A stretch of DNA of 50,348 nt from Selenomonas sp. GTDB taxonomy: Bacteria > Bacillota > Negativicutes > Selenomonadales > Selenomonadaceae. The translations under genes and the position numbers were made by a program. Positions 1,281 to 42,935 of this stretch are shown here, in pieces. Numbering within the stretch: position 1 is the first letter of the stretch; the number at the start of each line of letters is the position of its first letter. The DNA lies in assembly GCA_017635515.1 (NCBI GenBank), contig JAGBLH010000257.1, positions 1 through 50,348 on the forward strand, in the 5' to 3' direction. The notes under the pieces were generated by a model. The model had not been told where the DNA came from, searched no databases, and saw only the letters and a program-made list of their open reading frames with translations.

Positions 1281-1388
1281 TGAATAGCTCACAGGAGCCT
1301 GTCTGACGGGCAATAGGGTCTGAGGCATATATTTATACCTAAAACAAAAAATCGTGGCTTAGAAGCGAATCTGAGCCACGATTTTTTT
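1281..1388 (+). repeat. dispersed ~110-bp repeat, copy R1, ending in a terminator
   Basis: First of five copies (others near 25318-25427, 32649-32768, 36973-37083, 42819-42935). It contains a CACAGGAGCCT block, a GGCATAT..TTATACCTAAAAC block, and a hairpin whose arms (AATCGTGGCTTAG and CTGAGCCACGATT, 1350-1384) are bordered by A-run and T-run. The hairpin is a textbook bidirectional terminator. Conservation extends well beyond the hairpin, so the unit is more than a terminator. A palindrome of the second family follows 12 bases later. Confidence 0.75.
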
Positions 1389-5139: not shown

Positions 5140-6471
5140 TTGAAGGTGGCAGTGGCAAACAATCTTGGGCATGGTGACTGGATTGACAGGATCAGTCGGG
5201 AAATCATGCCTTTCGTGGAGTATGACGGTTACGAATATCGCTATCCTGCAAACGATATCCGTGTGATGCCTGGATATAGGATAGAAGAACTGAGAGAAGC
5301 AAGCAGGAAGCTGTTTGCTGTTTTCTGCAAGGCCACTATGATATGTCAGCATTGTGAAGACAGGCTCCTTCAGGAAATGGAAATCCCCCAGGATATGATA
5401 CCGTTCCTGCACAGCATGAATGCTCTTAATCTGCCTACATGGCTGGCTCGTTTTGATTTTGTGCTGAATGAATCTGACGAGTTCAAAATGGTGGAGATAA
5501 ATGCGGATACTCCATGTGCTGTGGTTGAATCTTATTATGCAAATGAGCTTGCTTGCAGGAATTTTGGCAAGGCAAATCCTAACCGTGGGTGCTATGAGGG
5601 GCTGAAAGATTGGCTTACATATATCTATTGGGCTGCTTCGCCTGAGATTGATCTGAAGGCAAGCCATTTCTCAACAGTCCGTCCTTTTGTTTTCTCCTGC
5701 TTTGAGGATTACAAGGAGGATTACGGCACGACATTGTTCTTGATGAATGCCATGAAAGCGGGGGTGGGGGAATTTGTTCCTGATGAGGCGATTTGCTTTG
5801 AGTCTTTTTACGGTTTGGGGATAGATGAGGCCAATCAGGTTATCACTTCTGATGGCAGGGTGGCAAAGGGGATATACCGCCTCCATCCCATGGAGCTGCT
5901 GATTGATGAGACCAGTGATGACGGAAGCACTATTGGCATAAATATGATGAAGGGGTACGCTGAAGGTAAATTCATGATGTTCAATCCCCCGGAATCTTTA
6001 ATCATGCAAAGCAAGGGATTCCAGGCTTTTCTTTGGGCGTTGGCAGAAAGGGAGCACAAGTCGCTGAATGCTGATGAAGTGCATACTATAAGGAAGTATA
6101 TGCTGCCAACGTATTTCGAGGATGACTGTGACATTGGAAAGAAGAAATATCCTGACCAGCTTTGGATCAGAAAACCGCTCTGGGGCAGGGAGGGGCTGGA
6201 TATTTCAGTGGTTGATGGTTCCGGCAGGATACAGTTCCAGAAAGATAATCTGCCTGAGGAGATAATCAGAAGGGAGAGCAGGACTTCCATATGGCAAAAG
6301 TATGCTACTCAGCCTATGATACAGGCGAATACGGATGAGGGTTTTTTGAATGGCTACCAGACTGTATCTTGCTTCATGCTTGGGGGTGTGCCAAGCGCTG
6401 TCTATGCCAGGTTTTCTCCTGAAGCTATTGCAGGGACGGAGGCATACTGGCTTCCCTTGGGCATAGAATAA
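5140..6471 (+). CDS. YgiC-like ATP-grasp carboxylate-amine ligase (glutathionylspermidine synthase family)
   Basis: About 443 residues of the GSP_synth ATP-grasp family. Recognisable are the substrate-side block FKMVEINADTPCAVVES (about residues 111-127) and the ATP-grasp block DQLWIRKPLWGREGLDIS, which parallels the RPLxGREGxNI motif of YgiC and Gss. The family joins an amine to a carboxylate using ATP; the substrate of YgiC-type members is not settled. The start is uncertain: TTG 5140, GTG 5146 and GTG 5152 all lie close to GGTGG or AAGGTGG. It follows the YgiB-like gene by nine bases and ends directly before a strong terminator, so it closes the T4SS operon segment. Confidence 0.85.
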   Translation: MKVAVANNLGHGDWIDRISREIMPFVEYDGYEYRYPANDIRVMPGYRIEELREASRKLFAVFCKATMICQHCEDRLLQEMEIPQDMIPFLHSMNALNLPTWLARFDFVLNESDEFKMVEINADTPCAVVESYYANELACRNFGKANPNRGCYEGLKDWLTYIYWAASPEIDLKASHFSTVRPFVFSCFEDYKEDYGTTLFLMNAMKAGVGEFVPDEAICFESFYGLGIDEANQVITSDGRVAKGIYRLHPMELLIDETSDDGSTIGINMMKGYAEGKFMMFNPPESLIMQSKGFQAFLWALAEREHKSLNADEVHTIRKYMLPTYFEDDCDIGKKKYPDQLWIRKPLWGREGLDISVVDGSGRIQFQKDNLPEEIIRRESRTSIWQKYATQPMIQANTDEGFLNGYQTVSCFMLGGVPSAVYARFSPEAIAGTEAYWLPLGIE

Positions 6472-6731: not shown

Positions 6732-7808
6732 TCATTGCCTAAGTAAATCACTCCCTTGGCTTTGATGGTGGTTTTGTGTTTTATTTAATCGGCTCTGGCA
6801 GGTTGTGTCCTCTATGGGCTGGAAATATTTTTTATTGTATTCCATGTCAGCCTGTAAATCTTTTGTTGAGTATTGACTGCCACTTAGTATGCGTTCCAGT
6901 GCTTGGGAATCGTATTTCTTAGTGACACAACGATCATATGCACGGTCTAATATTAACTTCTTGCGATAGTCAATGTATTTTTTGTAAAATTCTTTGCGTG
7001 TTTCTGAAATCAATGGTGTGTTGTCAATTATTCTATGGATGGTATCTATGTTGATTCGAGGAACCATTCTTTTTACAGCAGAGGTACAGTCTGAATCGTA
7101 ATTGGATGCCATCATATCGTAATATCCGACCTTGCCTTTTTTTTCGGCAGTTATGAATAAGGTGGCAGAAGGGAATACCAGGCATCGTTCGTACAGCATG
7201 AATTCGTTATTCATTATCGTTTCAATGCCGTCATCGGAAAGCTGTGGTAATAAGGAGCTACCAAAATCATACACGGGAGCAATGGATAGCTGATTGTTGT
7301 TGGATAAATACCCCCAGTTTCCTGCATGACGATCAAAGTTACCCACCAAGGCATCCGCAACAAATGTATCCCAATATCTTGCTATAGAATCCTCTCTGAG
7401 TTCTTCAGAAAATATATTTGTATCACTCAAAGTGTTATATATTTGGTCCAATCGGATTACTCTTTTTATTTCCTTTGGTTCATAACAGGCCCGGACGAAT
7501 TCGGCAAATTCAATGTTCTGTTCGTTTGGACCACGAAAATCCAGGCAACCTACAACAGGCCTATCATCATAAAGACCCAAGACGGTTTTATGTGTTGGAA
7601 GCCCCATGGATTCAGATATATGAGAACAAATATACTCTGAAACTACATTGTTAATATAACTGGTTGACATATCTGTTTTTTTTGCGTGTTTATCTGAAAA
7701 TTTAATTATATAAGGATTTCCATTGTATTCTACTTCAAACTTTCTGTCAGTTCCACCTAACGCACGAAAAATTCTCTTGCAGTTTGTGAAGTCGATAATT
7801 TCTTCCAT
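6732..7808 (-). CDS. HipA/CtkA-type serine/threonine kinase
   Basis: A 358-residue kinase-like protein. The catalytic loop ALVGNFDRHAGNWGYL (Asp159, His161, Asn164) and the metal-binding PVYDFGSS (Asp181) are the two signatures of HipA-fold kinases. The N-terminal lobe has a beta-sheet with the ATP-lysine candidate in YIIKFSDKH (Lys36). It lacks the HipB-contacting N-subdomain of long HipA proteins and is nearer in size to the shorter CtkA-like branch. It is the last gene of a five-gene minus-strand operon and starts one base after an 82-residue protein, so translation is probably coupled. In toxin pairs of this fold the kinase phosphorylates a translation-related target; the target here is unknown. 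Confidence 0.85.
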   Translation of the reverse strand: MEEIIDFTNCKRIFRALGGTDRKFEVEYNGNPYIIKFSDKHAKKTDMSTSYINNVVSEYICSHISESMGLPTHKTVLGLYDDRPVVGCLDFRGPNEQNIEFAEFVRACYEPKEIKRVIRLDQIYNTLSDTNIFSEELREDSIARYWDTFVADALVGNFDRHAGNWGYLSNNNQLSIAPVYDFGSSLLPQLSDDGIETIMNNEFMLYERCLVFPSATLFITAEKKGKVGYYDMMASNYDSDCTSAVKRMVPRINIDTIHRIIDNTPLISETRKEFYKKYIDYRKKLILDRAYDRCVTKKYDSQALERILSGSQYSTKDLQADMEYNKKYFQPIEDTTCQSRLNKTQNHHQSQGSDLLRQ

Positions 7809-8498: not shown

Positions 8499-8972
8499 TC
8501 ATTCATAGTCAGTTGGCAAGCAGAAGTTCAGGATGCTGTCCAGCTTGCTGGGGTCATCTTTCAGGACACGCAGGAGGTTTGACATGGAGCGGCTGGGGAG
8601 GATGTCTCCTGATTCGTAACGCTGGAAGCTTCTCAGGCCACCGCCTATCTTTCTGGCTGCCTGTTCCTGGGTGAGGCCAAGGCCTTCACGGATTTCTTTG
8701 ATCTGCTCCGGCAGCAGGAGGTTTTCGGCTTCGGCTTTGGCTCGGTTGATGTTGCGGTGAATCTGCTTCTGGTCTTCCTTTGAATAGATTCCGTATGTGC
8801 CTTCAGGTTCATCTTCAGGATACCAGCCCGGATTGATGACTTCTTTCTCGATGCCGTTGAAGACGAATTTTTCTTTGCGGTAGCCACGGACACAGATCTG
8901 GCCTGATTCTGCCATCAGCTGATATTCGGGGAGCTTGCTTTCGTAGGGGTAAAGAAATTCCATGGTTTGCAC
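8499..8972 (-). CDS. MqsA/YgiT-type XRE regulator (antitoxin-like)
   Basis: A 157-residue protein. Its C-terminal half (about residues 85-145) is a Cro/C1-type helix-turn-helix with the MqsA/YgiT pattern LLPEQIKEIREGLGLTQEQA followed by GGGLRSFQRYESGDILPS. The N-terminal half would be the zinc domain in MqsA, but here it has a single Cys in place of paired CxxC motifs, so zinc binding is unlikely. It is first in the minus-strand operon and lies downstream of a palindrome between promoter boxes, so autoregulation is likely. GTG 8972 or ATG 8963 could be the start; AGAAAGG lies upstream of both. Confidence 0.8.
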   Translation of the reverse strand: MQTMEFLYPYESKLPEYQLMAESGQICVRGYRKEKFVFNGIEKEVINPGWYPEDEPEGTYGIYSKEDQKQIHRNINRAKAEAENLLLPEQIKEIREGLGLTQEQAARKIGGGLRSFQRYESGDILPSRSMSNLLRVLKDDPSKLDSILNFCLPTDYE

Positions 8973-24729: not shown

Positions 24730-25296
24730 TTGAAGAAGATACGTTGGATGCGTGTGACAGCAGTGATTGTTATACTATCTGGGATAATTTATGGTACATC
24801 TCTTGCCTACAATGAGTATGCAGCCCATGAGAGGGAAATCGAGAACTTGCAGACTGTGGCAGCTCAGGTATCTCATCAGTCAACGGAGGGAACTTCTACT
24901 CCGTATACAAACGTAGCGCCGGATGGTTACTCAAAATTTACCCCGCAAGAAAAGGAAGAATATCATAAATCGCATCTTATGCTTGATGACGATACCATAA
25001 AAACAAACAAGGAGAAAATCAAGCATGGAGATTTTACTGGCATCAAGGCAATAGTCTATGCAAACAGCAGCCAGACTGCGCAGTGGGGCAACTCTACAAA
25101 AGAGGCTGCAAGGATAAAACTCAGCGATTCGGATCAGGCCAAGCTTGACTTGCTGGCCGCACAGTATGCCGGGCAGGAAGCTGGCTTTGAGATAGAGTTC
25201 TATGACAATGACGGACACTTCACCATAAATCGACTGGTTCTGGGGGGCCTGAAAGATAAGAAGCAGGATTCGGAACCAGCAAAGCAGGGGAATTGA
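24730..25296 (+). CDS. membrane-anchored hypothetical protein (188 aa)
   Basis: A 188-residue protein with one N-terminal membrane helix (TAVIVILSGIIYGTSLAY, about residues 9-26) and an external domain with no cysteines. GGAAGGTGG lies five bases before the TTG at 24730; ATG 24745 is an alternative. The external part has a helical, charged region and a C-terminal beta-like block (AGFEIEFYDNDGHFTINRLV). A degraded copy of its 3' part and downstream region occurs at 36857-37258, upstream of the CRISPR genes. Function unknown. Confidence 0.65.
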   Translation: MKKIRWMRVTAVIVILSGIIYGTSLAYNEYAAHEREIENLQTVAAQVSHQSTEGTSTPYTNVAPDGYSKFTPQEKEEYHKSHLMLDDDTIKTNKEKIKHGDFTGIKAIVYANSSQTAQWGNSTKEAARIKLSDSDQAKLDLLAAQYAGQEAGFEIEFYDNDGHFTINRLVLGGLKDKKQDSEPAKQGN

Positions 25297-25317
25297 CGGA
25301 TTTTAATACTGGCATCC

Positions 25318-25427
25318 AAAAATCGTGGCTCAGATTCGCTTCTAAGCCACGATTTTTTTATTTTAGGTATAAGGATATACCTTGACGGTTTTAACCGCTC
25401 AGAGAGGTCCCTGTGCGATATTCTGCA
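25318..25427 (-). repeat. dispersed ~110-bp repeat, copy R2, with terminator
   Basis: Inverted relative to R1. The hairpin (ATCGTGGCTCAGA and TCTAAGCCACGAT, with A- and T-runs, 25318-25358) ends the preceding gene's transcript. The ATTTTAGGTATAAGGATAT and GGTCCCTGTGCGATATTCTGC blocks continue the similarity to R1 and R4 on the other strand. Confidence 0.75.
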
Positions 25428-25503
25428 TTTTTATGAACATAGAAACCATATATTCATATTCATAAAGATTTTTTTGCCTCAGAGAAATATTTATTAAAAT
25501 TAG

Positions 25504-25531
25504 TTGACACAATACATTATTGTGTTATAAT
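25504..25531 (+). promoter_or_regulatory. promoter with palindromic operator before a small membrane protein
   Basis: TTGACA (25504-25509) and TATAAT (25526-25531) with a 16-base spacer. A perfect dyad, ACACAATA and TATTGTGT around CAT (25507-25525), fills the spacer. The homologous promoter at 37157 upstream of csy1 keeps both boxes but not this dyad, so the two are probably regulated differently. Confidence 0.85.
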
Positions 25532-25574
25532 AGAATTGCAAGCAGAATACACAATATCTGAGGAGGAGTTCATT

Positions 25575-25748
25575 ATGAAGACAAACACTATGACCGCAGC
25601 AGAGTATCGTCACAGGATGGCACAGAGGGAAATGGTTCTGAGCATCGGACATGCAGTAATTGATTTCTTGGAGTACATTACTCCGTTCATTGGCATCGGA
25701 GTCGGAGCTATGCTCACCTGGTTCTGCATGTGCTTGCTGCTGGTGTGA
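25575..25748 (+). CDS. small single-span membrane protein (57 aa)
   Basis: A 57-residue protein: a basic N-terminal half (MKTNTMTAAEYRHRMAQRE) and a hydrophobic helix (YITPFIGIGVGAMLTWFCMC, about residues 34-53). AGGAGGAG lies six bases before the ATG. It is expressed from a consensus promoter with an operator-like dyad. Its size and topology resemble small membrane toxins or phage holin-like peptides, but that is only a resemblance. A broken copy of its first codons (ATG changed to ATA, stop after ten codons) lies at 37230-37260 upstream of csy1. Confidence 0.7.
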   Translation: MKTNTMTAAEYRHRMAQREMVLSIGHAVIDFLEYITPFIGIGVGAMLTWFCMCLLLV

Positions 25749-27274: not shown

Positions 27275-30247
27275 TTACAATAGTCGCTTGAACGCTTTTT
27301 CCTGTTCTTCTTCTTGTTCGAATACGCTCATGAGCTTCCAATTCTTGGCGGTGTCATCGCTCTTCATGGAAACAATGTTCTTTGCCATGGCGTTTCCGTT
27401 GATGGCAGCCGTGATGATGGTGGGCCTGTCCAGATTTGAAAATTGGGGGGTGATGGGGGGCAGGTTTGCTATGCCACCACCAGAACTGCCTCCGCTTTTG
27501 GCTACTGTGTAGCGGGTGGTCGCTCTCTCTTTGTCCATTGCTTCTTTGATGCCGTTAAGATTCTTGCCAGCCTCCATATACTTTTGATGGGCAAGCTGTG
27601 TACGCTTCTTGGCTGTTTCATAGATTCTTGCCTGAGGGAGATTCTTTCTGAGGATTCCTGCGGTGATCTCTTTGATTTTTTCTGGCGCGCCGGGAGCTTC
27701 GCACTTGGCTCTAAGCTCTGCCTCTTTTTTGTTTAGGCTGCTTTCTTTGCTTTCTAATGTGCTGCGAGTGGATTCGATTTCTTTTTTTAGACGATGGCAT
27801 TCATCGGAAAGGGCAAGATGTTCTTCTGTTCCAGGCTGGAATTTTCCTAATCTGTGCTCGGCTCCTGCCAGCTTGCCTATTTGAGCCTGAAGCTTCTCCT
27901 GCTCTTTTTTCAATGCCCTTCGCTCGGAACGTAGGACTTTGTATTCTCCCTTGACGAAAACATCCTCAGCCATTTTCGTGGCTCGTTCAGGAGAGATGTA
28001 TTTCTTGGCAGCTTCTTCTTCTTCTTCTCTTGCTTTCTGGTATTCGTTCTTGGCAGCGTAGTATCTTTTCCTCATTATGTTGTAAAGGTCACGGAGGGTA
28101 TAGCTTTCCTGATTGTTGATCAGGTCTTCGCCGCTGTCTAAGGCTTGGGTGAGTGAAAGCATGGAGGTTCGCAGGCGTTTGAGAGATTTCTTTAGTTCAA
28201 TGCGGCTGTTCTTATCTTCCTCCAAAAGGTTATGGACATATTTTTGTCTCCGCTCTTTCAGTTCTGGCTGAGTCAGCTTTTTGTCAAGGAGCTGTATGGC
28301 TGGCTCCATATGTTCCTTCAGATGTTCCATTGCTTCGATTTTGGTTTGGATGGGGGAAAGGAGCTTCAGGTAATCAGGTGTGCTCTCATCTGGATCTATG
28401 CTGGCATAGAATTCTTTCCAATGCTCGATTTCATCTGTGAGTGCAAGATATTTCTGATACTGTTCTTTCTCGTCCTCTTCCAGAAATGCAAGCTTGCCTT
28501 CGGTCACGGCATCGTCTACCCATAAGACTGTTTTCTCATCTATCTTCATTTGCTTCAGAGCATCGAGAAAGTCATTCTTCAATTCTGCCATAAATTCATC
28601 GCTGTCTTCATCTTCTTCGATTTCTTCAAAGTCATTTCGCCGCATAAGCTCGTCAGCCAGATCCCTTAGTTCGTCAATCTCTTTTTTCAGTTCAAGTTCA
28701 TTGATTTCTTTCCTGATGATTTCTGTTGAGAAAAGCTTGTCTTGGTATTCCCGTTTCTGCTGACGGTATTGCTTGAGAGCTTTATAGGCTTGGCTCTCTG
28801 TTTTCATGCTTCCAATGGGGCCTAATGTCCTCTCAGGAATTCTTTTCAGTATATTTGCCATAAATTCATCGCCGTTCATCAGGGCTTCCTCACGCATGGC
28901 TTTTATGGAGCGGTGATCTACTCTGTCAGGCTTGCCGTACTTTTCGAGAATGTCATTTGTGACTTCGGCAAAATCTCTGCGGGCTTCTGATATGAATCTT
29001 TGGGCACTTAACCTGCGTTCGACATGAGCACCGCCTTTTCGTGCTTCTTCTAAAGTTTTAGCATTTCGTTTCGGGTAGAGGAAGTATTTGCTGGCAGGTC
29101 TTTCCTTTTCTTGCTCTGCTTCATCTATTATCCTGGGTGAAAACATCAAGTGTACATGAAGATTATGGGAGCCATCTGACATGGCTCCCACTTTGTCATG
29201 GATTGCAAAGGTATAGTAGTGGTTTGGTATTTCTTTGTCAATATAGTTATGGATGAGTTCAAGGTTTTGCTCCATGGTCAATTCATTCGGCAGGGCAAAC
29301 TGAAATTCAAGATATCGTACATTTTTCTTGCTCTCATATCTGTCAGCTGCTGCGAAAAATCGTTTCGCATCACCTTTTGCCCATTTTGGAAGGCGGTTTT
29401 CTGTATAGATGCATCCTCCCTTTTTCTCGAAGGCGGCTTCACGGTTGATGTACTCTACATGAGAAAAAGCGTGTACCTTGTCTTCTGCTTTCTCTATGTT
29501 GGCTATTATTCTTCCGGCTGTTCCTCTGATGAGTCTTCCTCTTCCGTCACGATTATTCCATCGCACATGGGAATTAAGTTCTGATCTTCTGTGCTCCAGC
29601 AGGTCGAGGAAGTGGTCTTGCAGTAGCATTGCAGGTTTTCCTGATCCAGTATTATCCATACTGCGTTTGGGCAGTGTGCGCAGAGTGGGAGGGGAGAGGG
29701 ATACAGATTGTGATAGGGTGCGTCCTCTCCCATCATGGATAGGAGTGTCATGCTTTTGGGTGGCTCTCCTTTTAATGTATTTACCGCCTCTAAGTCGAAA
29801 TTCTCTTCGCTCATTTTGTTCTTCCTCCATTTTCTTTGCCAGTGTTCTTTTTGATTCCTCATCCAGGGTTATGTCAATATTGAATTTCAGGATGCTGTCC
29901 AGTGCCTTTTCTTTGAAGGCATTGCTCCCACGGAGTATGACTGTCTCGTTCTTATAGGTTTCTGCTGCTATTGTGAGAGCAATAGCTATGGTGGCTTCTG
30001 ATGAATCACCTGAGATCTTCAATCCATGTGGCGTATTTGTGATTTGCCCATAAGCACTATCATAAAGGAGCAGTGGCTCTCCATCCAGAAGGTCCTTGCC
30101 ATTGGCAAAGGAAATGAAGTTGTTGGGGGGCTTGTCCTGATTTTGATATTTTCCTTTCCTCTCGATGTATTCCAGGTGCTCCACGCAGGAAACTTTGGTT
30201 TTGTCTGGTTTTTTGTCTTTGTGGACAGAGAAATGATACATTGCCAT
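27275..30247 (-). CDS. MobA/MobL-family relaxase with long coiled-coil C-terminus
   Basis: A 990-residue relaxase. The MobA/MobL core lies at about residues 280-380: SHVEYINREAAFEKKGG, LPKWAKGDAKRFFAAADRYE, RYLEFQFALPNELT and the metal-binding histidines in HNLHVHLMFSPR near residue 365. A transesterase Tyr would lie near the core start. Unusually, the protein also begins with a similar motif pair (MAMYHFSVHKDKK, CVEHLEYIERKGKY), so a partial domain copy or a ~250-residue insertion precedes the core. Residues 480-900 are coiled coil. ATG 30247 is used because GGAG lies eight bases upstream; an earlier start would overlap the previous gene. It nicks oriT and pilots the strand into the recipient. 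Confidence 0.9.
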   Translation of the reverse strand: MAMYHFSVHKDKKPDKTKVSCVEHLEYIERKGKYQNQDKPPNNFISFANGKDLLDGEPLLLYDSAYGQITNTPHGLKISGDSSEATIAIALTIAAETYKNETVILRGSNAFKEKALDSILKFNIDITLDEESKRTLAKKMEEEQNERREFRLRGGKYIKRRATQKHDTPIHDGRGRTLSQSVSLSPPTLRTLPKRSMDNTGSGKPAMLLQDHFLDLLEHRRSELNSHVRWNNRDGRGRLIRGTAGRIIANIEKAEDKVHAFSHVEYINREAAFEKKGGCIYTENRLPKWAKGDAKRFFAAADRYESKKNVRYLEFQFALPNELTMEQNLELIHNYIDKEIPNHYYTFAIHDKVGAMSDGSHNLHVHLMFSPRIIDEAEQEKERPASKYFLYPKRNAKTLEEARKGGAHVERRLSAQRFISEARRDFAEVTNDILEKYGKPDRVDHRSIKAMREEALMNGDEFMANILKRIPERTLGPIGSMKTESQAYKALKQYRQQKREYQDKLFSTEIIRKEINELELKKEIDELRDLADELMRRNDFEEIEEDEDSDEFMAELKNDFLDALKQMKIDEKTVLWVDDAVTEGKLAFLEEDEKEQYQKYLALTDEIEHWKEFYASIDPDESTPDYLKLLSPIQTKIEAMEHLKEHMEPAIQLLDKKLTQPELKERRQKYVHNLLEEDKNSRIELKKSLKRLRTSMLSLTQALDSGEDLINNQESYTLRDLYNIMRKRYYAAKNEYQKAREEEEEAAKKYISPERATKMAEDVFVKGEYKVLRSERRALKKEQEKLQAQIGKLAGAEHRLGKFQPGTEEHLALSDECHRLKKEIESTRSTLESKESSLNKKEAELRAKCEAPGAPEKIKEITAGILRKNLPQARIYETAKKRTQLAHQKYMEAGKNLNGIKEAMDKERATTRYTVAKSGGSSGGGIANLPPITPQFSNLDRPTIITAAINGNAMAKNIVSMKSDDTAKNWKLMSVFEQEEEQEKAFKRLL

Positions 30248-30267
30248 GGTGCCGCTCCAATCATCAC

Positions 30268-30597
30268 TTAATAGCTGGGCTTGAAGTAAGGGACGGTTAT
30301 TTCTTGTACCCTTTTCATGAACCTTTCGTAAAACTTCACGATTTCCCCCGTAGGATGATGGAGGAGCAGACCTTTGCATACTTCGCTGTTTTCTGCAATC
30401 ACTACAGAATATCCCATCAGTCCACGGTATGATACGGGGAAAATATCTAATCCTATGGGTCCTGATTCCATCAGCACCAGTTCCGTCAGGTGCTCACTTA
30501 GTGCATTTTCTACTGATGTACCCTGGGGAGCCAGTTCGATAGATATACCAGCCAGGCTCTCAGGCAGTCCTTTTATGTCTTGGTTGTTGATTATCAT
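30268..30597 (-). CDS. hypothetical protein encoded ahead of the relaxase
   Basis: A 109-residue soluble protein (start MIINNQDIKGLPESLAG) with GAGGAG before its ATG, ending 20 bases before the relaxase start. It could be a relaxosome accessory protein by position, but it has no ribbon-helix-helix motif and is not recognised as MobC. Its central SYRGLMGYSVVIAENSEVCK suggests a small alpha/beta fold. It lies immediately downstream of the candidate oriT. Confidence 0.65.
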   Translation of the reverse strand: MIINNQDIKGLPESLAGISIELAPQGTSVENALSEHLTELVLMESGPIGLDIFPVSYRGLMGYSVVIAENSEVCKGLLLHHPTGEIVKFYERFMKRVQEITVPYFKPSY

Positions 30598-36856: not shown

Positions 36857-37258
36857 GGAAACTTCTACACCATATACTAAACAAATCGCTTGGTTCTGGG
36901 GAATTGAAAGATAAGAAGCAGAACTTGGAATCTGCAAAACAGAGTGATTGGCGAATTTTGATACTGACATCCAAAAAATCGTGGCTCAGATTCGCTTCTA
37001 AGCCCCGATTTTTTGTTTTAGGTATAAAGATATGCCTTGGAGTATTCACTCGTTCAGAAAGGCTCCTGTGCGATATTCTGCACTTTTATGAATAAATGAG
37101 TTATATATTCACATTCATGGAAAGTTTTGCCTCAGGGGAATATTTATTAAAAATAGTTGATAATGTATATTATCGTGCTATAATAGAATTGCAAACAGAA
37201 TACACAACACCTGAGGAGGAGTTCATTATAAAGATAAATATTATGACCGCTAGAGATT
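36857..37258 (+). pseudogene. decayed duplicate of the 24.9-25.6 kb locus, including repeat R4
   Basis: From GGAAACTTCTACACCATATAC this stretch follows 24888-24915, then jumps about 320 bases and follows 25234-25605: gene 3' end (TTGAAAGATAAGAAGCAG), repeat R4 (36973-37083, minus orientation, GTGGCTCAG/CTAAGCCCCG hairpin), promoter, and GAGGAGGAGTTCATTAT. The small membrane-protein copy is dead: its ATG is ATA and a TAG follows after ten codons. No intact gene lies between 36828 and 37296; this duplicated region now serves as the upstream region of the csy operon. Confidence 0.8.
37157..37184 (+). promoter_or_regulatory. putative promoter of the csy operon
   Basis: TTGATA (37157-37162) and TATAAT (37179-37184) with a 16-base spacer, homologous to the promoter at 25504. 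The spacer has a different, shorter dyad (GATAAT and ATTATC around GTAT, 37160-37175), so repressor specificity may have changed. It lies about 110 bases before csy1 with no terminator between. Confidence 0.75.
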
Positions 37259-37296
37259 AGTTCAGGATTTGCTCCCAATACGGGGGAGGAGTGAAA

Positions 37297-38442
37297 ATGA
37301 GCATATTTGGTGAATATGTGCGGGCAGCTGCTGAGAAGAAGAAGCTTCTGCCTGATGAGTGGCTCAGGAATGCAGCCAGCAAGGCAGAGTGCTGCAATTT
37401 TTCTACGCATGTTGGTAGATACAGCCACCCGGATGTGAAGACTACATGGCAAGCTGAAAGAAATTGCTGCCCTGATGAGCCGTATGTGTCAACGGCTTCC
37501 GCTGACTGCGCTCTGGATGTGGCTGTTTCAGCTGCTTATCTGCCTACTATAAATCTGCTGTACCTCCAGCTGGAGGATGGGAGGACTTTTTATGAGCATC
37601 TGGCAGAGGATGATGAAGTCCTAAGAAGGGATATAGAGGCTTTTGATGTCGATTATCATGCCCTGCGGGATGATTTTTTGAGCATCGGGTCTTATGAGAT
37701 ACCTAAGGCAACGGATCACAGGCTTTATCAGGTTTTCTTCCCTGTGGGCAATGATGATTATCATCTGCTTACGGTGATGCCACCATCCAGCGTCATGCAG
37801 GAGTTAAAAAGACGGATTGTAGCCAGGAATAATCAGGCCTATGAGGACTGGAAGAACGGCAAAGAAAACACTTACCATAGAAAGCTCCATATCGTTCAGA
37901 CCAAGTTTGGGGGAACAAAAGTTCAGAACATCAGTTTCGTGAATAACAGCATGGGAGGACGGCTCTATATGCTGGAATCTTTGCCTCCCATACTGAGGAA
38001 GAGGGATGTGGTTTATCCTCGGAACGATTTCTTCATGGATGTGCTCAGGTTGCGTGAATTCCGTGGATTGTTTTACAGGCTTCATGGCAGGTACAAGGAC
38101 GGCAGACATAACAAGGAAATCCGGCAGTCTGTCCGTGATGTCGAGGCTCAGATCATGGAGAGAGTCCTTCTGCATGTCTATGACCTGAGGCAGGGGCCGG
38201 ACGGATGGAGCGATTGCCGCCATATAAGCACAGCACAGGCAATATGGCTTGATGACAAGCATGCTGACCTGAGGCAGAAAATGAGCTGGAGACAGGAGAT
38301 AGCTGACAGCTTTGCTGCCTGGTTCATGAATTCTTACCGCCTGGTCATGAAGCAGAAAGCTGTTGAGCTGGGCGATGGTGAATTCAAGGCATTGAGCGCA
38401 GAAGTGAAGGAGTTCATTGCCGATGACATTAGAAATCAGTAG
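37297..38442 (+). CDS. csy1: type I-F Cascade subunit Csy1 (Cas8f)
   Basis: A 381-residue Csy1/Cas8f. Diagnostic blocks are FSTHVGRYSHPDVK (about residues 35-48) and QTKFGGTKVQNISFVNNSMG followed by LESLPP (about residues 200-230). It is somewhat shorter than the ~430 residues usual for I-F. In the Csy complex it pairs with Csy2 at the crRNA 5' end and contributes to PAM recognition. GGAGGA lies six bases before ATG 37297; a GTG at 37291 is too close to it. It is first in a four-gene operon with no cas1 or cas2-3 upstream, unlike standard I-F loci. Confidence 0.92.
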   Translation: MSIFGEYVRAAAEKKKLLPDEWLRNAASKAECCNFSTHVGRYSHPDVKTTWQAERNCCPDEPYVSTASADCALDVAVSAAYLPTINLLYLQLEDGRTFYEHLAEDDEVLRRDIEAFDVDYHALRDDFLSIGSYEIPKATDHRLYQVFFPVGNDDYHLLTVMPPSSVMQELKRRIVARNNQAYEDWKNGKENTYHRKLHIVQTKFGGTKVQNISFVNNSMGGRLYMLESLPPILRKRDVVYPRNDFFMDVLRLREFRGLFYRLHGRYKDGRHNKEIRQSVRDVEAQIMERVLLHVYDLRQGPDGWSDCRHISTAQAIWLDDKHADLRQKMSWRQEIADSFAAWFMNSYRLVMKQKAVELGDGEFKALSAEVKEFIADDIRNQ

Positions 38443-38453
38443 GGGATGATTAT

Positions 38454-39323
38454 ATGTCTGAGAAATTTTTGCTGATTCCCCACTTGCGAATCATAAATGC
38501 CCAGGCTGCCAGTACGCCGTACACTGTTGGTTTTCCAGCTATGACTGCCTGGCTGGGGCTTGTCCATGCGCTTGAGCGTTCTATTCGGCAGACTGAGCCA
38601 TTTCATGAGGCAAGGCTGCCACGGGTTGCTGTATCTTGCCACAGCTGTGATTTGCAGGTGTTCAGGGATAAGAACAATCGCTATGGGTCGCTGATTGGCA
38701 TGAAAAAGCCGTTGCGGAAGAAGCAAAACTCAAATGAGTTCCTTCCTGCCCAGTTCATCGAGGAGAGCCGCTGCCATCTGGAGGTCAGCTTGCTGATTGA
38801 GGTGACAGGGCTGGAAAGCGCTGATATCAGGGCTTTCGAGGATGCAGCAAGGAAGGAATTGCCACGGCTGAAGGGAGCAGGTGGGGATATTGTGTTGTCC
38901 TGCCATGAGCTTGACCGCTGGAGGGTTTATGAGATAGCGGAAGATGATATGTCAACTGAGCAGAAACTCAGGAACAAGCTGATGCCTGGGCATGTCATCA
39001 TCGAAAGGCAAGATCTGATGGAGCATGAGGCTGGAACTGACTCTATAGACCGCATGCTTGATGTGATACAGGGGATATGCCCGTCAGATGGCTGGATCGT
39101 TCCGATTGCGGTTGGCTTCCGGGATTTGTCTGGCAGCCTCAAAGTGAAGAACCAGCGGTCATATGACCATGACCACCATTTCGTGGAGCCTCTGGTTACT
39201 ATGGGAGAGTTCATTATTCCATACCGTCTGAAGTCTATCCGGGATATGATGTGGTCATATGAGTATAGAGAAGCAGATGGCCTATATTTGTGCAAGAACA
39301 ATGGCAAGAAGCATTCTGATTGA
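38454..39323 (+). CDS. csy2: type I-F Cascade subunit Csy2 (Cas5f)
   Basis: A 289-residue Csy2. The N-terminus LLIPHLRIINAQAASTPYTV followed by GFPAMTAWLGLVHALER is the family hallmark; the C-terminal half keeps the SYDHDHHFVEPL region. It binds the 5' handle of the crRNA and forms a heterodimer with Csy1. It is a little shorter than Pseudomonas Csy2 (about 330 residues). It starts 11 bases after csy1 with AGGGG as ribosome site and ends 18 bases before csy3. No frameshift or missing region is apparent. Confidence 0.92.
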   Translation: MSEKFLLIPHLRIINAQAASTPYTVGFPAMTAWLGLVHALERSIRQTEPFHEARLPRVAVSCHSCDLQVFRDKNNRYGSLIGMKKPLRKKQNSNEFLPAQFIEESRCHLEVSLLIEVTGLESADIRAFEDAARKELPRLKGAGGDIVLSCHELDRWRVYEIAEDDMSTEQKLRNKLMPGHVIIERQDLMEHEAGTDSIDRMLDVIQGICPSDGWIVPIAVGFRDLSGSLKVKNQRSYDHDHHFVEPLVTMGEFIIPYRLKSIRDMMWSYEYREADGLYLCKNNGKKHSD

Positions 39324-39341
39324 TTAGTGGAGGTTTTGATT

Positions 39342-40394
39342 ATGGCTAAGAATACTTTGGAAGTTCCTTCTGTACTGTCTGCTGAAAAGAAAATCGTGGT
39401 GTCTGATGCGTATATGTATGGCACTACATGGTTTGATGTTCGGCATGCACTCAATGCTAATAATGTATCCTGCGAACCTTTACAGCTGGTGGAAAAGTCT
39501 GTGCGGGGAACTATTTCCAACAGGCTGAAACCTGCTATGCAGAATGATCCTGCCAAGCTGAATGCTGAGGTCGAGAAAGCTAATCTGCAAAAAGTGGATG
39601 CTTGTTCACTTAATATCAACCAGGATACATTGAAGCTGGTGTTCACTGTCAAGGTATTGAGTGGCGTAGACAGGTTCTGCGCTTGCAACAGCAGCGCTTT
39701 TGCCCAGAGCTATGGCAACTCTGTCAGGAGCTATTATCGAGAAACTGGATTCAAGGAACTGGCTTATCGTTATGCTCATAACATTGCCAATGGCCGCTTC
39801 TTGTGGCGCAATTATTTTGGGGCCGAGAAGATTGAGGTACTGGTTGATGTTGATGGGAAAAATCTTTCAGATGACATCCATCTTGAGCTGAATGCACATG
39901 ATTTCTCCATGCGTGATTTTAAGCATAATCCGGAGATTGATGTTCTGGCTGACAGGATTGCTGCCGCTTTGTCCGGCGAGATTCCTTTCCTGCTCATCAG
40001 GGTGGCTGCTTTTGCGAAGATGGGAGCAGGGCAGGAGGTTTATCCCAGCGAGGAGCTTGTGTTCGACAAGGGCAAGAGCGACAAGAGCAAGGTTCTTTAC
40101 CAGGTAGGGGGCACGGCTGCCATGCATTCCCAGAAGATAGGCAATGCAATCCGTACTATTGATACATGGTATCCTGATTTCGGCACGGAGGCCGGGGTTG
40201 GCCCGATTCCTGTTGACCCTTATGGGGCTATCACGACAATGGGGAAGGCTTTCCGCAACCCGCAGGGGAAAAAGGATTTCTATACGCTTTTTGATAAGTT
40301 CGCTTCGGGAGAAAGTCTTGAGTGCGTAGAGGATGAGCATTTTGTCATGTCCGTGATGGTGCGTGGGGGCGTTTTCGGGAAGGCGGGAGCTTGA
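39342..40394 (+). CDS. csy3: type I-F Cascade backbone subunit Csy3 (Cas7f)
   Basis: A 350-residue Csy3, the usual length. Typical blocks include SGVDRFCACNSSAFAQSY, the NGRFLWRNYFGAE segment and the C-terminal GPIPVDPYGAITTMGKAFR. Six copies polymerise along the spacer of the crRNA. The ATG at 39342 follows GTGGAGG by nine bases; an in-frame GTG at 39327 overlaps that site. The stop codon overlaps the csy4 start (ATGA). All visible conserved regions are present, so the interference complex should assemble. Confidence 0.93.
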   Translation: MAKNTLEVPSVLSAEKKIVVSDAYMYGTTWFDVRHALNANNVSCEPLQLVEKSVRGTISNRLKPAMQNDPAKLNAEVEKANLQKVDACSLNINQDTLKLVFTVKVLSGVDRFCACNSSAFAQSYGNSVRSYYRETGFKELAYRYAHNIANGRFLWRNYFGAEKIEVLVDVDGKNLSDDIHLELNAHDFSMRDFKHNPEIDVLADRIAAALSGEIPFLLIRVAAFAKMGAGQEVYPSEELVFDKGKSDKSKVLYQVGGTAAMHSQKIGNAIRTIDTWYPDFGTEAGVGPIPVDPYGAITTMGKAFRNPQGKKDFYTLFDKFASGESLECVEDEHFVMSVMVRGGVFGKAGA

Positions 40395-40969
40395 TGTTTT
40401 ATCAGGAGCTTACTTTGCTGCCAGATGTGACTATAAATATCAATCATTTGTGGAGCAAGGTATATACGCAGATCCATCTGGCTCTGGCATCGCAGATGCC
40501 TGATGGAGCAAAGGGAATCATAGGCGTGTCGTTCCCGCAGTATGAGGCTGGCAAGGATATGACTTTGGGCAGCAAGCTTCGCCTGTTCGCTGAAACTAAG
40601 GATGTCCTGGACAATCTGGAGATACGGGAGTGGCTTCGGGCATATCGTGAGTATGTCCATATCAAGGATGTCCATTCCGTGCCCGCTGATATTGATGGGT
40701 ATGCTGTGTTCAGGAGGCATCGCCAGGACAATGATGCAACACGGAAGGCCAGACGGTATGCCAAACGGCATGGTGTCTCTTTTGAGGAGGCCAAGAGATT
40801 ATATCCTGAAGAGATACAGTTCAAAGATTATCCGTTTATCCGCATGAACAGCGAAACCAATCATAACAGATTCTGTCTTGTCATCGAGAAGGTTCATCGG
40901 GATGGCAAGATTGTTGAGGGGTTCGGAAGCTTTGGGCTGGATAGCCATTCGACTGTGCCGGAGTTTTGA
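40391..40969 (+). CDS. csy4: crRNA endonuclease Csy4 (Cas6f)
   Basis: A 192-residue Csy4/Cas6f. His29 sits in KVYTQIHLALASQ at the same position as the catalytic His of the Pseudomonas enzyme. Ser154 in RMNSETNHNRF matches its active-site Ser148. The Arg-rich groove helix (RRHRQDNDATRKARRYAKRH) and the end motif GFGSFGL...TVPEF are also present. It cuts at the base of the repeat hairpin and stays bound to it. The array's hairpin (CCGCC-GTGTA-GGCGG) has the same 5-bp stem and 5-nt loop as standard I-F repeats, with paired substitutions, so enzyme and array seem matched. Confidence 0.94.
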   Translation: MMFYQELTLLPDVTININHLWSKVYTQIHLALASQMPDGAKGIIGVSFPQYEAGKDMTLGSKLRLFAETKDVLDNLEIREWLRAYREYVHIKDVHSVPADIDGYAVFRRHRQDNDATRKARRYAKRHGVSFEEAKRLYPEEIQFKDYPFIRMNSETNHNRFCLVIEKVHRDGKIVEGFGSFGLDSHSTVPEF

Positions 40970-41014
40970 CCGAAATTTTTTGTGTGGCTCAAGACCCGCA
41001 TGAAATAAGGGAGT

Positions 41015-41293
41015 ATGGGCACTAAAAAAATCATGGGTAAAAGAGCGGGAAAGGGTGTGGAAAAGGCCGTGAAAACGCCCCCTCATAGCAGCAAGTCGAG
41101 CAAGGAGCAAAAAAGAAAATTGCTGGATATGCTGGCTCGTCTGAGCACGGACGAGTTAGCTTTGGTCATGGCAACAGGATTGAAGTGCGAACATTGCCCT
41201 GTTGCAGGAGAAAAAGGTGCTTGCTATGATAAGGTAGTTTGCTGCAAAACAATGTCACAATGGTTGGGAGAGGAACAAATGGCATGCAGATGA
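41015..41293 (+). CDS. Cys-rich small protein between csy4 and the array
   Basis: A 92-residue protein. The N-terminal 40 residues are basic and Ser/Lys-rich; a helix KRKLLDMLARLSTDELALVM and a Cys cluster follow (CEHCP...ACYDKVVCCKTMSQWL), suited to bind zinc. Small Cys/Trp proteins of this type are common in phages and mobile elements. AAGGGAG precedes the ATG. It lies 45 bases after csy4 and overlaps an rdgB remnant (ATG at 41284). Whether it helps the CRISPR system or is a passenger carried along with the rdgB fragment is unknown. Confidence 0.65.
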   Translation: MGTKKIMGKRAGKGVEKAVKTPPHSSKSSKEQKRKLLDMLARLSTDELALVMATGLKCEHCPVAGEKGACYDKVVCCKTMSQWLGEEQMACR

Positions 41294-41367
41294 TGATTGC
41301 ATCCAGCAATACTGGAAAAGTAAGGGAAATTCGGGAATATTTTTCTGATTTGCCTGTTGAGGCATGA
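41284..41367 (+). pseudogene. 5' remnant of an RdgB/HAM1 nucleotide pyrophosphatase gene
   Basis: Starting at ATG 41284, 27 codons read MIASSNTGKVREIREYFSDL from residue 4 on, then PVEA and TGA. This is the start of the HAM1/RdgB fold (S/T-N-x-GKxxEx) that normally continues for about 190 residues. The match ends abruptly 40 bases before the first CRISPR repeat. It marks a recombination joint: a gene pair (Cys-rich protein and rdgB) was cut, and the array lies at the break. Confidence 0.7.
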
Positions 41368-41406
41368 TGCCAGCTGTGGTGCGGGATAGTACCAGTGTTC
41401 CTTACT

Positions 41407-42435
41407 GTTGACCGCCGTGTAGGCGGCTTACAAGTGCAACTTCGTTGCTGGTTAAACCCCTTGCGGGGTTGACCGCCGTGTAGGCGGCTTACAATTGCAA
41501 GTACCGCCCTATGAATGGTGCTTGCCTGTTGACCGCCGTGTAGGCGGCTTACAAGATGACACCCCAGGCAATCAAATCCTTCGGCTGGTTGACCGCCGTG
41601 TAGGCGGCTTAGAAATGATGGTGATTTTTCGATAAGGCAATGGCTGCGTTGACCGCCGAATGGGTGGCTTACAAGCTAGAGGAATGTCAGTAGATCTGAA
41701 TTATTTGATTGACCGCCGTGTAGGCGGCTTACAATTGTCGAGCTGCTTGAAAATATCTGCCAAGGCAGTTGACCGCCGTGTAGGCGGCTTACAAGTGTGT
41801 CCATACGGATACTTGTTTGACTTTGCAGTTGACCGCCGTGTAGGCGGCTTACATGTGCTGTAAGTGATAACCGTATTAAGTGGGATAGTTGACCGCCGTG
41901 TAGGCGGCTTACAAACGTATCTTATCAATGCATTTTTTTAACCTTTTGTTGACCGCCGTATAGGCGGCTTACAAGTAGTGATATTACAGCAACGATGAGA
42001 GCTAGGAGTTGACCGCCGTATAGGCGGCTTACAGGATCAGGTACTAGATGTACATGGAACAACGCCCATTACCGCTGTGCAGGTGGCTTGCAGTCCAGGG
42101 GGATTTGAGTAGAAGTTTTCCCGCCGTATAGGTGGCTTACAGGAGGGACATCCATCAGCTAACCTGATATCAGCTGATTGACCGCCGTACAGGTGGCTTA
42201 CAAGTGTGGTTATTATTGGCCGACTTATTGACCGCTGAGCAAGTGGCTTACAAGTCATGGGGCCGGAGCAGTATATCAAGGCCTTTGTTGACTGCCGTGT
42301 AGGCGGCTTACAGGTTGGCAAATTTATAGTTGAACTGTAAATTTGCCATTGACCGCCGTGTAGGCGGCTTACAGAATGCTGTAAGCTTTGGCTGTGCATT
42401 ACGCTTTATTGACCGCCGTGCAGGTGGCTTACAAT
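41407..42435 (+). CRISPR. type I-F CRISPR array, 18 repeats and 17 spacers
   Basis: Repeat of 28 nt beginning GTTGACCGCC and ending GGCGGCTTACAAG, with hairpin CCGCC-GTGTA-GGCGG. Starts: 41407, 41468, 41528, 41588, 41648, 41708, 41768, 41828, 41888, 41948, 42008, 42068, 42117, 42177, 42227, 42287, 42348, 42408. Most spacers are 32-33 nt; two are about 22 nt (42095-42116, 42205-42226). Repeats are uniform at the csy4 side, apart from the one at 41648, and degenerate from 42068 on, so the plus strand is probably the transcript and the leader side is near 41400. There is no AT-rich leader. Three spacers are strongly palindromic (41435, 41496, 42315). Confidence 0.97.
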
Positions 42436-42818: not shown

Positions 42819-42935
42819 TGAATACAGCGTAGTAGGCGTTTTGAGCGTTCCTAGATGGCGAGGCATAGTTTTATACCTAAATTTGATTATCGTGGCTCAG
42901 AAACGATTCTGTGAGGTCGTTTTTAGAGGGATTTT
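42819..42935 (+). repeat. dispersed repeat, degenerate copy R5
   Basis: GGCATAGTTTTATACCTAAA and ATCGTGGCTCAGAAACGATTC align with R1, and CTGTGAGGTCG is shared with R3. It has the opposite orientation to R4 at 36973, so R4 and R5 bracket the CRISPR module as inverted repeats. The 308-base gap 42786-43093 holds only R5 and the palindrome P5. Confidence 0.6.

What the first reader, a model, noticed from the sequence alone, without database searches (positions are those of the whole stretch)
37297..42435. Plasmid-borne type I-F CRISPR system reduced to the Csy complex, with no Cas1 or Cas2-3
csy1-csy2-csy3-csy4 and an 18-repeat array are complete, and Csy4 keeps its catalytic His and Ser. No cas1 or cas2-3 is adjacent or elsewhere in the window. 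TniQ and Tns genes are absent, so it is not an I-F3 CRISPR-transposon. The complex could bind DNA without cutting (transcriptional or replication block), recruit a host Cas2-3, or depend on an unknown effector. Plasmid-borne systems without adaptation genes are known for type IV and some type I; a four-gene I-F set beside Wadjet is at least rare.
Basis: partly seen in the sequence, partly recalled or inferred. Interest (0 to 1): 0.85.

Follow-up and report, generated by a model that had tools for sequence, protein, structure and literature searches.

The report
Plasmid-borne Csy complex without its nuclease
A plasmid of a rumen-type Selenomonas relative carries a CRISPR machine that can find DNA but has no blade or memory-making genes of its own; a matching blade (Cas3) sits elsewhere in the same assembled genome, so the plasmid may borrow it, though nobody has tested whether it cuts, blocks or does nothing.

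Summary
Window 37297-42435 holds intact csy1-csy2-csy3-csy4 plus an 18-repeat I-F array on a contig with MobA/MobL, TrbL, ALP and TopB genes. No cas1, cas2-3 or TniQ, or remnant of cas1/cas3, lies on the contig. The proteins belong to I-F1 (sister to Selenomonas I-F1, 49-65% identity). They are neither I-F3 (Tn7) nor the I-F Cas8-HNH variant, whose published Cas8-HNH sits, 100% identical, on another contig of this genome. (1) The assembly does encode one I-F Cas3 (contig C7, a Cas2-less form shared with a genus mate); its only Cas1 is in a type I-C-like locus. (2) csy1 is driven by a duplicated plasmid promoter. (3) The leader is broken by a 92-aa ORF and the repeats have diverged in the crRNA handle, so self-adaptation is unlikely. 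(4) The Csy1 helical bundle, the Cas3 platform, is as conserved as in Cas3-bearing systems. Best reading: a plasmid-embedded, non-adapting I-F1 surveillance module that borrows host Cas3 and otherwise only blocks its target. One comparable plasmid (Methylomonas) exists. A new variant of a known kind; no spacer target was found.

The parts
36898..37259 (+). duplicated plasmid promoter module (about 80% identical to 25243-25606); the small gene after it is broken here and csy1 follows
37157..37184 (+). sigma-70-like promoter TTGATA-16-TATAAT with TG before the -10, upstream of csy1
   Evidence: 11 of 12 matches; the paralogous copy reads TTGACA..TATAAT; not tested experimentally
37297..38442 (+). 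csy1 (cas8f), 381 aa from ATG; N-terminal domain plus intact C-terminal helical bundle
38454..39323 (+). csy2 (cas5f), 289 aa
39327..40394 (+). csy3 (cas7f), 355 aa
40391..40969 (+). csy4 (cas6f), 192 aa, His29 and Ser154 kept
40970..41014 (+). remnant of the first part of the I-F leader that follows csy4 in Selenomonadaceae loci
   Evidence: 27-28 of 45 identical; shuffle p about 5e-5
41015..41293 (+). ORF of 92 aa, Cys-rich C-terminus, lying between the leader remnant and the array; found in no other family genome
41407..42435 (+). I-F CRISPR array, 18 repeats (16 distinct), 17 spacers, 60-nt period; stem CCGCC/GGCGG paired in all copies; handle mostly CTTACAAG/T instead of CTTAGAAA
43094..50126 (+). 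neighbouring Wadjet JetABCD operon (G+C 0.30-0.37 against 0.48-0.50 for csy and most backbone genes)
27275..30379 (-). MobA/MobL relaxase (plasmid context)
1520..3436 (+). TrbL/VirB6 with M23 peptidase and lysozyme domains (plasmid transfer context)

Best explanation
The locus is a plasmid-embedded I-F1 surveillance module. It is transcribed from a plasmid promoter, Csy4 cuts the array transcript into crRNAs, and Csy1-4 with a crRNA form a Csy complex that binds matching DNA. Cutting depends on a Cas3 supplied in trans by the host (here the C7 Cas3; in other hosts a standard Cas2-3). Where no compatible Cas3 is present the complex would only block its target. The module does not adapt by itself: its spacer set is an old, slowly decaying repertoire. 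Shown: gene and array content, absence of cas1/cas3 on the contig, a Cas3 gene in the same assembly, promoter duplication, leader interruption, conservation of the Cas3 platform. Inferred: expression, complex formation, recruitment of C7 Cas3, and targets.
For: One I-F Cas3 lies elsewhere in the assembly (C7:32921-35848, 721 bits), and it is 88% identical to that of a genus mate. All other family genomes with standard csy genes carry an I-F cas3; the only Csy3-positive genomes without one (G146, G155) have the rearranged Cas8-HNH-type operon. The Csy1 helical bundle, the documented Cas3 platform (PMC11480323), is not relaxed: the bundle/N-terminal identity ratio is 1.02, against 0.69-1.17 in 35 other I-F1 Csy1 proteins outside the g22 set, nearly all from cas3-bearing loci, and its predicted fold spans P. 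aeruginosa Csy1 to the end (Z 16.6). Conserved residues are kept at rates normal for the family. All stem variants still pair. The csy genes match the plasmid backbone in G+C and GC3 and use a duplicated plasmid promoter. An engineered plasmid with exactly csy1-4 and a mini-array represses genes without Cas3, and in strains with a native I-F system had to be combined with Cas2-3 inhibitors (PMC10581170), so both outcomes are mechanistically open.
Against: C7 Cas3 belongs to another I-F branch (its csy1 is 37% identical to the window's over the N-terminal part) and lacks the Cas2 domain; compatibility is untested. The remaining csy genes and array of the C7 locus are not in the assembly (one search finds csy3 only on C216 and C172; one search finds no such repeats). 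The assembly is a draft of 316 contigs with 5.8% contamination, so plasmid and Cas3 may not share a cell. The bundle also locks target DNA, so its conservation does not prove Cas3 use. No spacer target was found.
Confidence: 0.45

Rival explanations
1. The Csy complex works without any nuclease, as an RNA-guided roadblock against rival plasmids or as a regulator of genes, comparable to type IV-A or to engineered I-F CRISPRi.
For: No nuclease on the contig; a strong plasmid-type promoter; an engineered csy1-4 plasmid silences genes without Cas3 (PMC10581170); handle and repeats have diverged from those of all Cas3-bearing relatives; it sits beside Wadjet, another anti-plasmid system.
Against: The Cas3 platform of Csy1 shows no relaxation. 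No DinG-like or other partner gene was identified. No spacer matches a host promoter closely; the only genomic match is a palindrome with 4-5 mismatches.
Confidence: 0.25
2. A decaying remnant of a complete I-F1 locus whose cas1 and cas2-3 were lost, kept by chance, with no current function.
For: Leader interrupted; distal repeats degenerate and two out of phase; no spacer hits; the one comparable plasmid locus (Methylomonas) has a split csy3 and an insertion in its array.
Against: Four intact genes with normal retention of conserved residues; every stem change keeps pairing (low power); near-consensus promoter; leader-proximal repeat cores almost identical.
Confidence: 0.2
3. An ordinary split I-F system: cas1 and cas2-3 sit on the unassembled remainder of the same plasmid.
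For: The contig is not circular and the assembly is a draft.
Against: Only one I-F Cas3 and one (type I-C-like) Cas1 in the whole assembly; C7 is chromosome-like and its genus-mate locus lies on a 2.1-Mb contig; csy1 is joined directly to a duplicated plasmid module.
Confidence: 0.07

Closest known systems
Type I-F1 CRISPR-Cas of Selenomonas (e.g. S. ruminantium Z108, locus L113)
   Same: Csy1-4 family, gene order, 28-nt repeat with CCGCC/GGCGG stem, 60-nt period
   Different: The known loci carry cas1 and cas2-3, an intact leader of about 130 nt, uniform repeats ending in TAGAAA, and are mostly chromosomal
Methylomonas sp. AM2-LC plasmid CP157006.1 (L132)
   Same: csy1-4 and array on a plasmid, no cas1 or cas3 match anywhere in the record
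   Different: csy3 split into two pieces; array interrupted by an insertion with a reverse-transcriptase-like ORF
Acinetobacter plasmids pB18-3 and pM3-1-68, and chromosomal loci C7 and G165 (L044)
   Same: I-F loci without cas1 and without the Cas2 domain
   Different: They keep an adjacent cas3
Type I-F Cas8-HNH (Selenomonas sp. RGIG9219)
   Same: Four-gene I-F effector without cas1 and cas3; present in the same genome (C172, 100% identical)
   Different: HNH replaces the helical bundle of Cas8, gene order csy3-csy4-csy1-csy2, own nuclease; the window Csy1 has the bundle and no HNH
Eroded type I-F locus of Acetobacter malorum LMG 1746
   Same: csy1, csy2, csy3 and cas6 without adjacent cas1/cas3 (PMC9379143)
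   Different: On the bacterial genome, with cas1, cas2 and cas3 at a second locus
Engineered plasmid CSYi system (PMC10581170)
   Same: csy1-4 plus array on a plasmid, no nuclease
   Different: Man-made

Membership tests
Type I-F1 | Csy1-Csy4 of the I-F1 clade in the order csy1-2-3-4 followed by an I-F array | tested here: met
Type I-F1 | cas1 and cas2-3 in the locus | tested here: not met
   the Cas3 on C7 is a separate, Cas2-less locus
Type I-F1 | Intact leader and uniform repeats (active adaptation) | tested here: not met
Type I-F3 (Tn7 CAST) | TniQ encoded with the cascade | tested here: not met
   whole assembly
Type I-F3 (Tn7 CAST) | Cas8-Cas5 fusion | tested here: not met
   csy1 and csy2 are separate genes
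Type I-F2 | No Cas8f | tested here: not met
   csy1 present
Type I-F Cas8-HNH | HNH domain in place of the Cas8 helical bundle | tested here: not met
Type IV-A (works-like comparison) | Csf proteins and DinG helicase | tested here: inconclusive
   All four Cas proteins match I-F models, so the Csf part is not met; DinG was not searched for specifically and not every ORF was scanned
Nuclease-independent CRISPRi-like action | Silencing of a matched target without Cas3 | not testable with these tools
   needs an assay
Cas3-in-trans interference | Recruitment of C7-type Cas3 by this Csy complex | not testable with these tools
   gene present; interaction untested

The most novel reading that the evidence does not exclude
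A natural nuclease-free I-F1 Csy complex maintained by a plasmid as an RNA-guided DNA-binding weapon or regulator (a natural counterpart of engineered I-F CRISPRi), with crRNA handles that have diverged from those of Cas3-bearing relatives.
Probability: 0.22. Interest if true: 0.8.

Novelty: new variant of a known kind. Interest (0 to 1): 0.45.

Why it matters
It would be a clean natural case of a type I effector stripped to target recognition on a plasmid, in a genome that also encodes Cas3 and a Cas8-HNH system. It makes a long-standing question directly testable: do mobile elements carry Cascade-only modules to borrow host Cas3, or to block DNA without cutting?

Tried and rejected
Hairpin spacers: two of 17 are strongly self-complementary, but the set does not differ from 281 control spacers (p 0.16). 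TG-start bias of spacers: weak (p 0.017) once the control bias is used. Stem covariation in the repeats: 100% paired, but shuffles reach it in 74 of 500, so weak. The IMG/VR Mu-like contig L090 looked like a second mobile Csy-only case; its csy1 lacks about the first 44 residues, so a prophage inserted into csy1 of a host locus is likelier. The rearranged csy3-4-1-2 loci (C172, G146, G155) looked new but C172 is the published Cas8-HNH system. I-F3 rejected.

Full report
Observation. The window is a complete contig (C216, 50,348 b) of a draft genome of 3.59 Mb in 316 contigs, estimated 95% complete and 5.8% contaminated. csy1-4 at 37297-40969 are intact and match the type I-F models. An array of 18 repeats with a 60-nt period follows at 41407-42435. 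The contig carries MobA/MobL, TrbL/VirB6, a type II/IV secretion ATPase, an actin-like protein, TopB and a cytosine methylase, consistent with a mobilisable plasmid; it is not closed. tblastn with ten Cas1/Cas2-3 proteins finds no remnant. TniQ is absent from the assembly.

Genome context. The only Cas1 in the genome lies on C238 beside genes that read as cas4, cas2 and a type I-C-like cas7 (subtype is my reading of the ORFs). One I-F Cas3 lies on C7 (32921-35848, 975 aa, starting at the HD motif without the Cas2 domain), followed by a csy1 cut by the contig end. The same cas3-csy1 pair (88% and 87% identical) occurs in genus mate G165, where cas3-csy1-2-3-4-array without cas1 sits on a 2.1-Mb contig. 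csy2-4 and the array of the C7 locus are not in the assembly. A third I-F set on C172, csy3-csy4-csy1-csy2, has a Cas8 identical over 344 residues to the solved Cas8-HNH of Selenomonas sp. RGIG9219, and its repeat matches the published crRNA. The assembly is therefore probably that isolate's genome or its closest kin.

Relatives. Csy3 is found in 25 of 189 family genomes and I-F Cas3 in 25. Every genome with the standard csy order has a cas3; G146 and G155, which lack it, have the Cas8-HNH-type order. The window proteins are sister to ten Selenomonas/G166 loci (99/97 support) at about 49-65% identity. All of those that are not cut by a contig end carry cas1 and cas2-3. Thirty named genomes found by sequence likewise carry them where the contig allows, apart from a few remote or cut loci. 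Among 36 PLSDB plasmids with Csy3, the distant ones without Cas3 (about 25-30% identity) are probably Tn7-type (not checked one by one); the one near relative without cas1 and cas3 is Methylomonas CP157006.1, with a split csy3 and an interrupted array. Two Acinetobacter plasmids have cas3 without Cas2 and no cas1. Plasmid systems lacking adaptation genes are common in general (36% carry them against 88% on chromosomes; PMC9071438).

Anatomy. The 360 b before csy1 are a copy, about 80% identical, of 25243-25606, including a near-consensus promoter; the small gene that follows in the original copy is broken here and csy1 comes in its place. G+C and GC3 of csy genes (0.48-0.50, 0.52-0.58) equal those of most backbone genes, unlike the A+T-rich Wadjet genes. 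In relatives the leader starts right behind csy4 and is about 130 nt long; here its first 45 nt remain and a 92-aa ORF unique to this plasmid follows, so the array is 437 nt from csy4. Repeats of relatives are uniform and end in TAGAAA; here 16 of 18 are distinct and 17 read TTACA or TTGCA in place of TTAGA. The stem pairs in every copy, but the test has little power. I infer that adaptation in cis has stopped and that the array is old yet probably still processable.

Mechanism. The helical bundle of Cas8f is the documented platform for Cas3 (PMC11480323). In the window it is as conserved relative to the N-terminal domain as in other I-F1 Csy1 proteins, nearly all from cas3-bearing loci (ratio 1.02; others 0.69-1.17), and the predicted fold covers it with confidence. 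This favours use of Cas3 in trans over a nuclease-free role, without excluding the latter. An engineered csy1-4 plasmid silences genes without Cas3 and needs anti-CRISPRs against native Cas2-3 in strains that have it, so the outcome in nature would depend on the host. No spacer target is known; one palindromic spacer resembles an extragenic palindrome of the family, including one copy in this genome, with 4-5 mismatches.

Verdict. A real, rare, plasmid-embedded I-F1 module reduced to target recognition; a new variant of a known kind. Function is inferred, not shown.

Noticed in passing
G000:C7 (L016:8921-12601) and L044:9396-16051: I-F loci of this genus with a stand-alone Cas3 lacking the Cas2 domain and no cas1; adaptation must come from elsewhere or be absent.
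   Followed up: partly
G000:C172 (L045:4975-8838), L048, L049: Cas8-HNH type I-F loci; C172 is 100% identical to the published Selenomonas sp. RGIG9219 Cas8-HNH, and two further family genomes carry relatives at one shared hemL-side site.
   Followed up: yes
window 42315-42347; G000:C190:17656-17688; L122, L123, L124: Spacer 16 is a near-perfect palindrome (GGCAAATTTATA-N7-TATAAATTTGCC type) that recurs as an extragenic palindrome in several family genomes, twice just upstream of DUF4143-like ATPase genes.
   Followed up: partly
window 1329-1388, 25300-25359, 36956-37015, 42867-42926: Four copies of a terminator-like palindrome; two of them bracket the csy-array cassette, which suggests modular exchange on the plasmid.
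   Followed up: no
L090 (IMGVR_UViG_2816332657_000002): Mu-like prophage apparently inserted into the 5' part of a host csy1, so a viral contig carries csy genes.
   Followed up: partly
window 5140-6471, 6732-7808, 8499-8972: Glutathionylspermidine synthase-like gene, HipA-like kinase gene and MqsA-like antitoxin gene on the plasmid backbone.
   Followed up: no
L132:11100-12600: An insertion with a reverse-transcriptase-like ORF (probably a group II intron) lies inside the CRISPR array of the Methylomonas plasmid.
   Followed up: no
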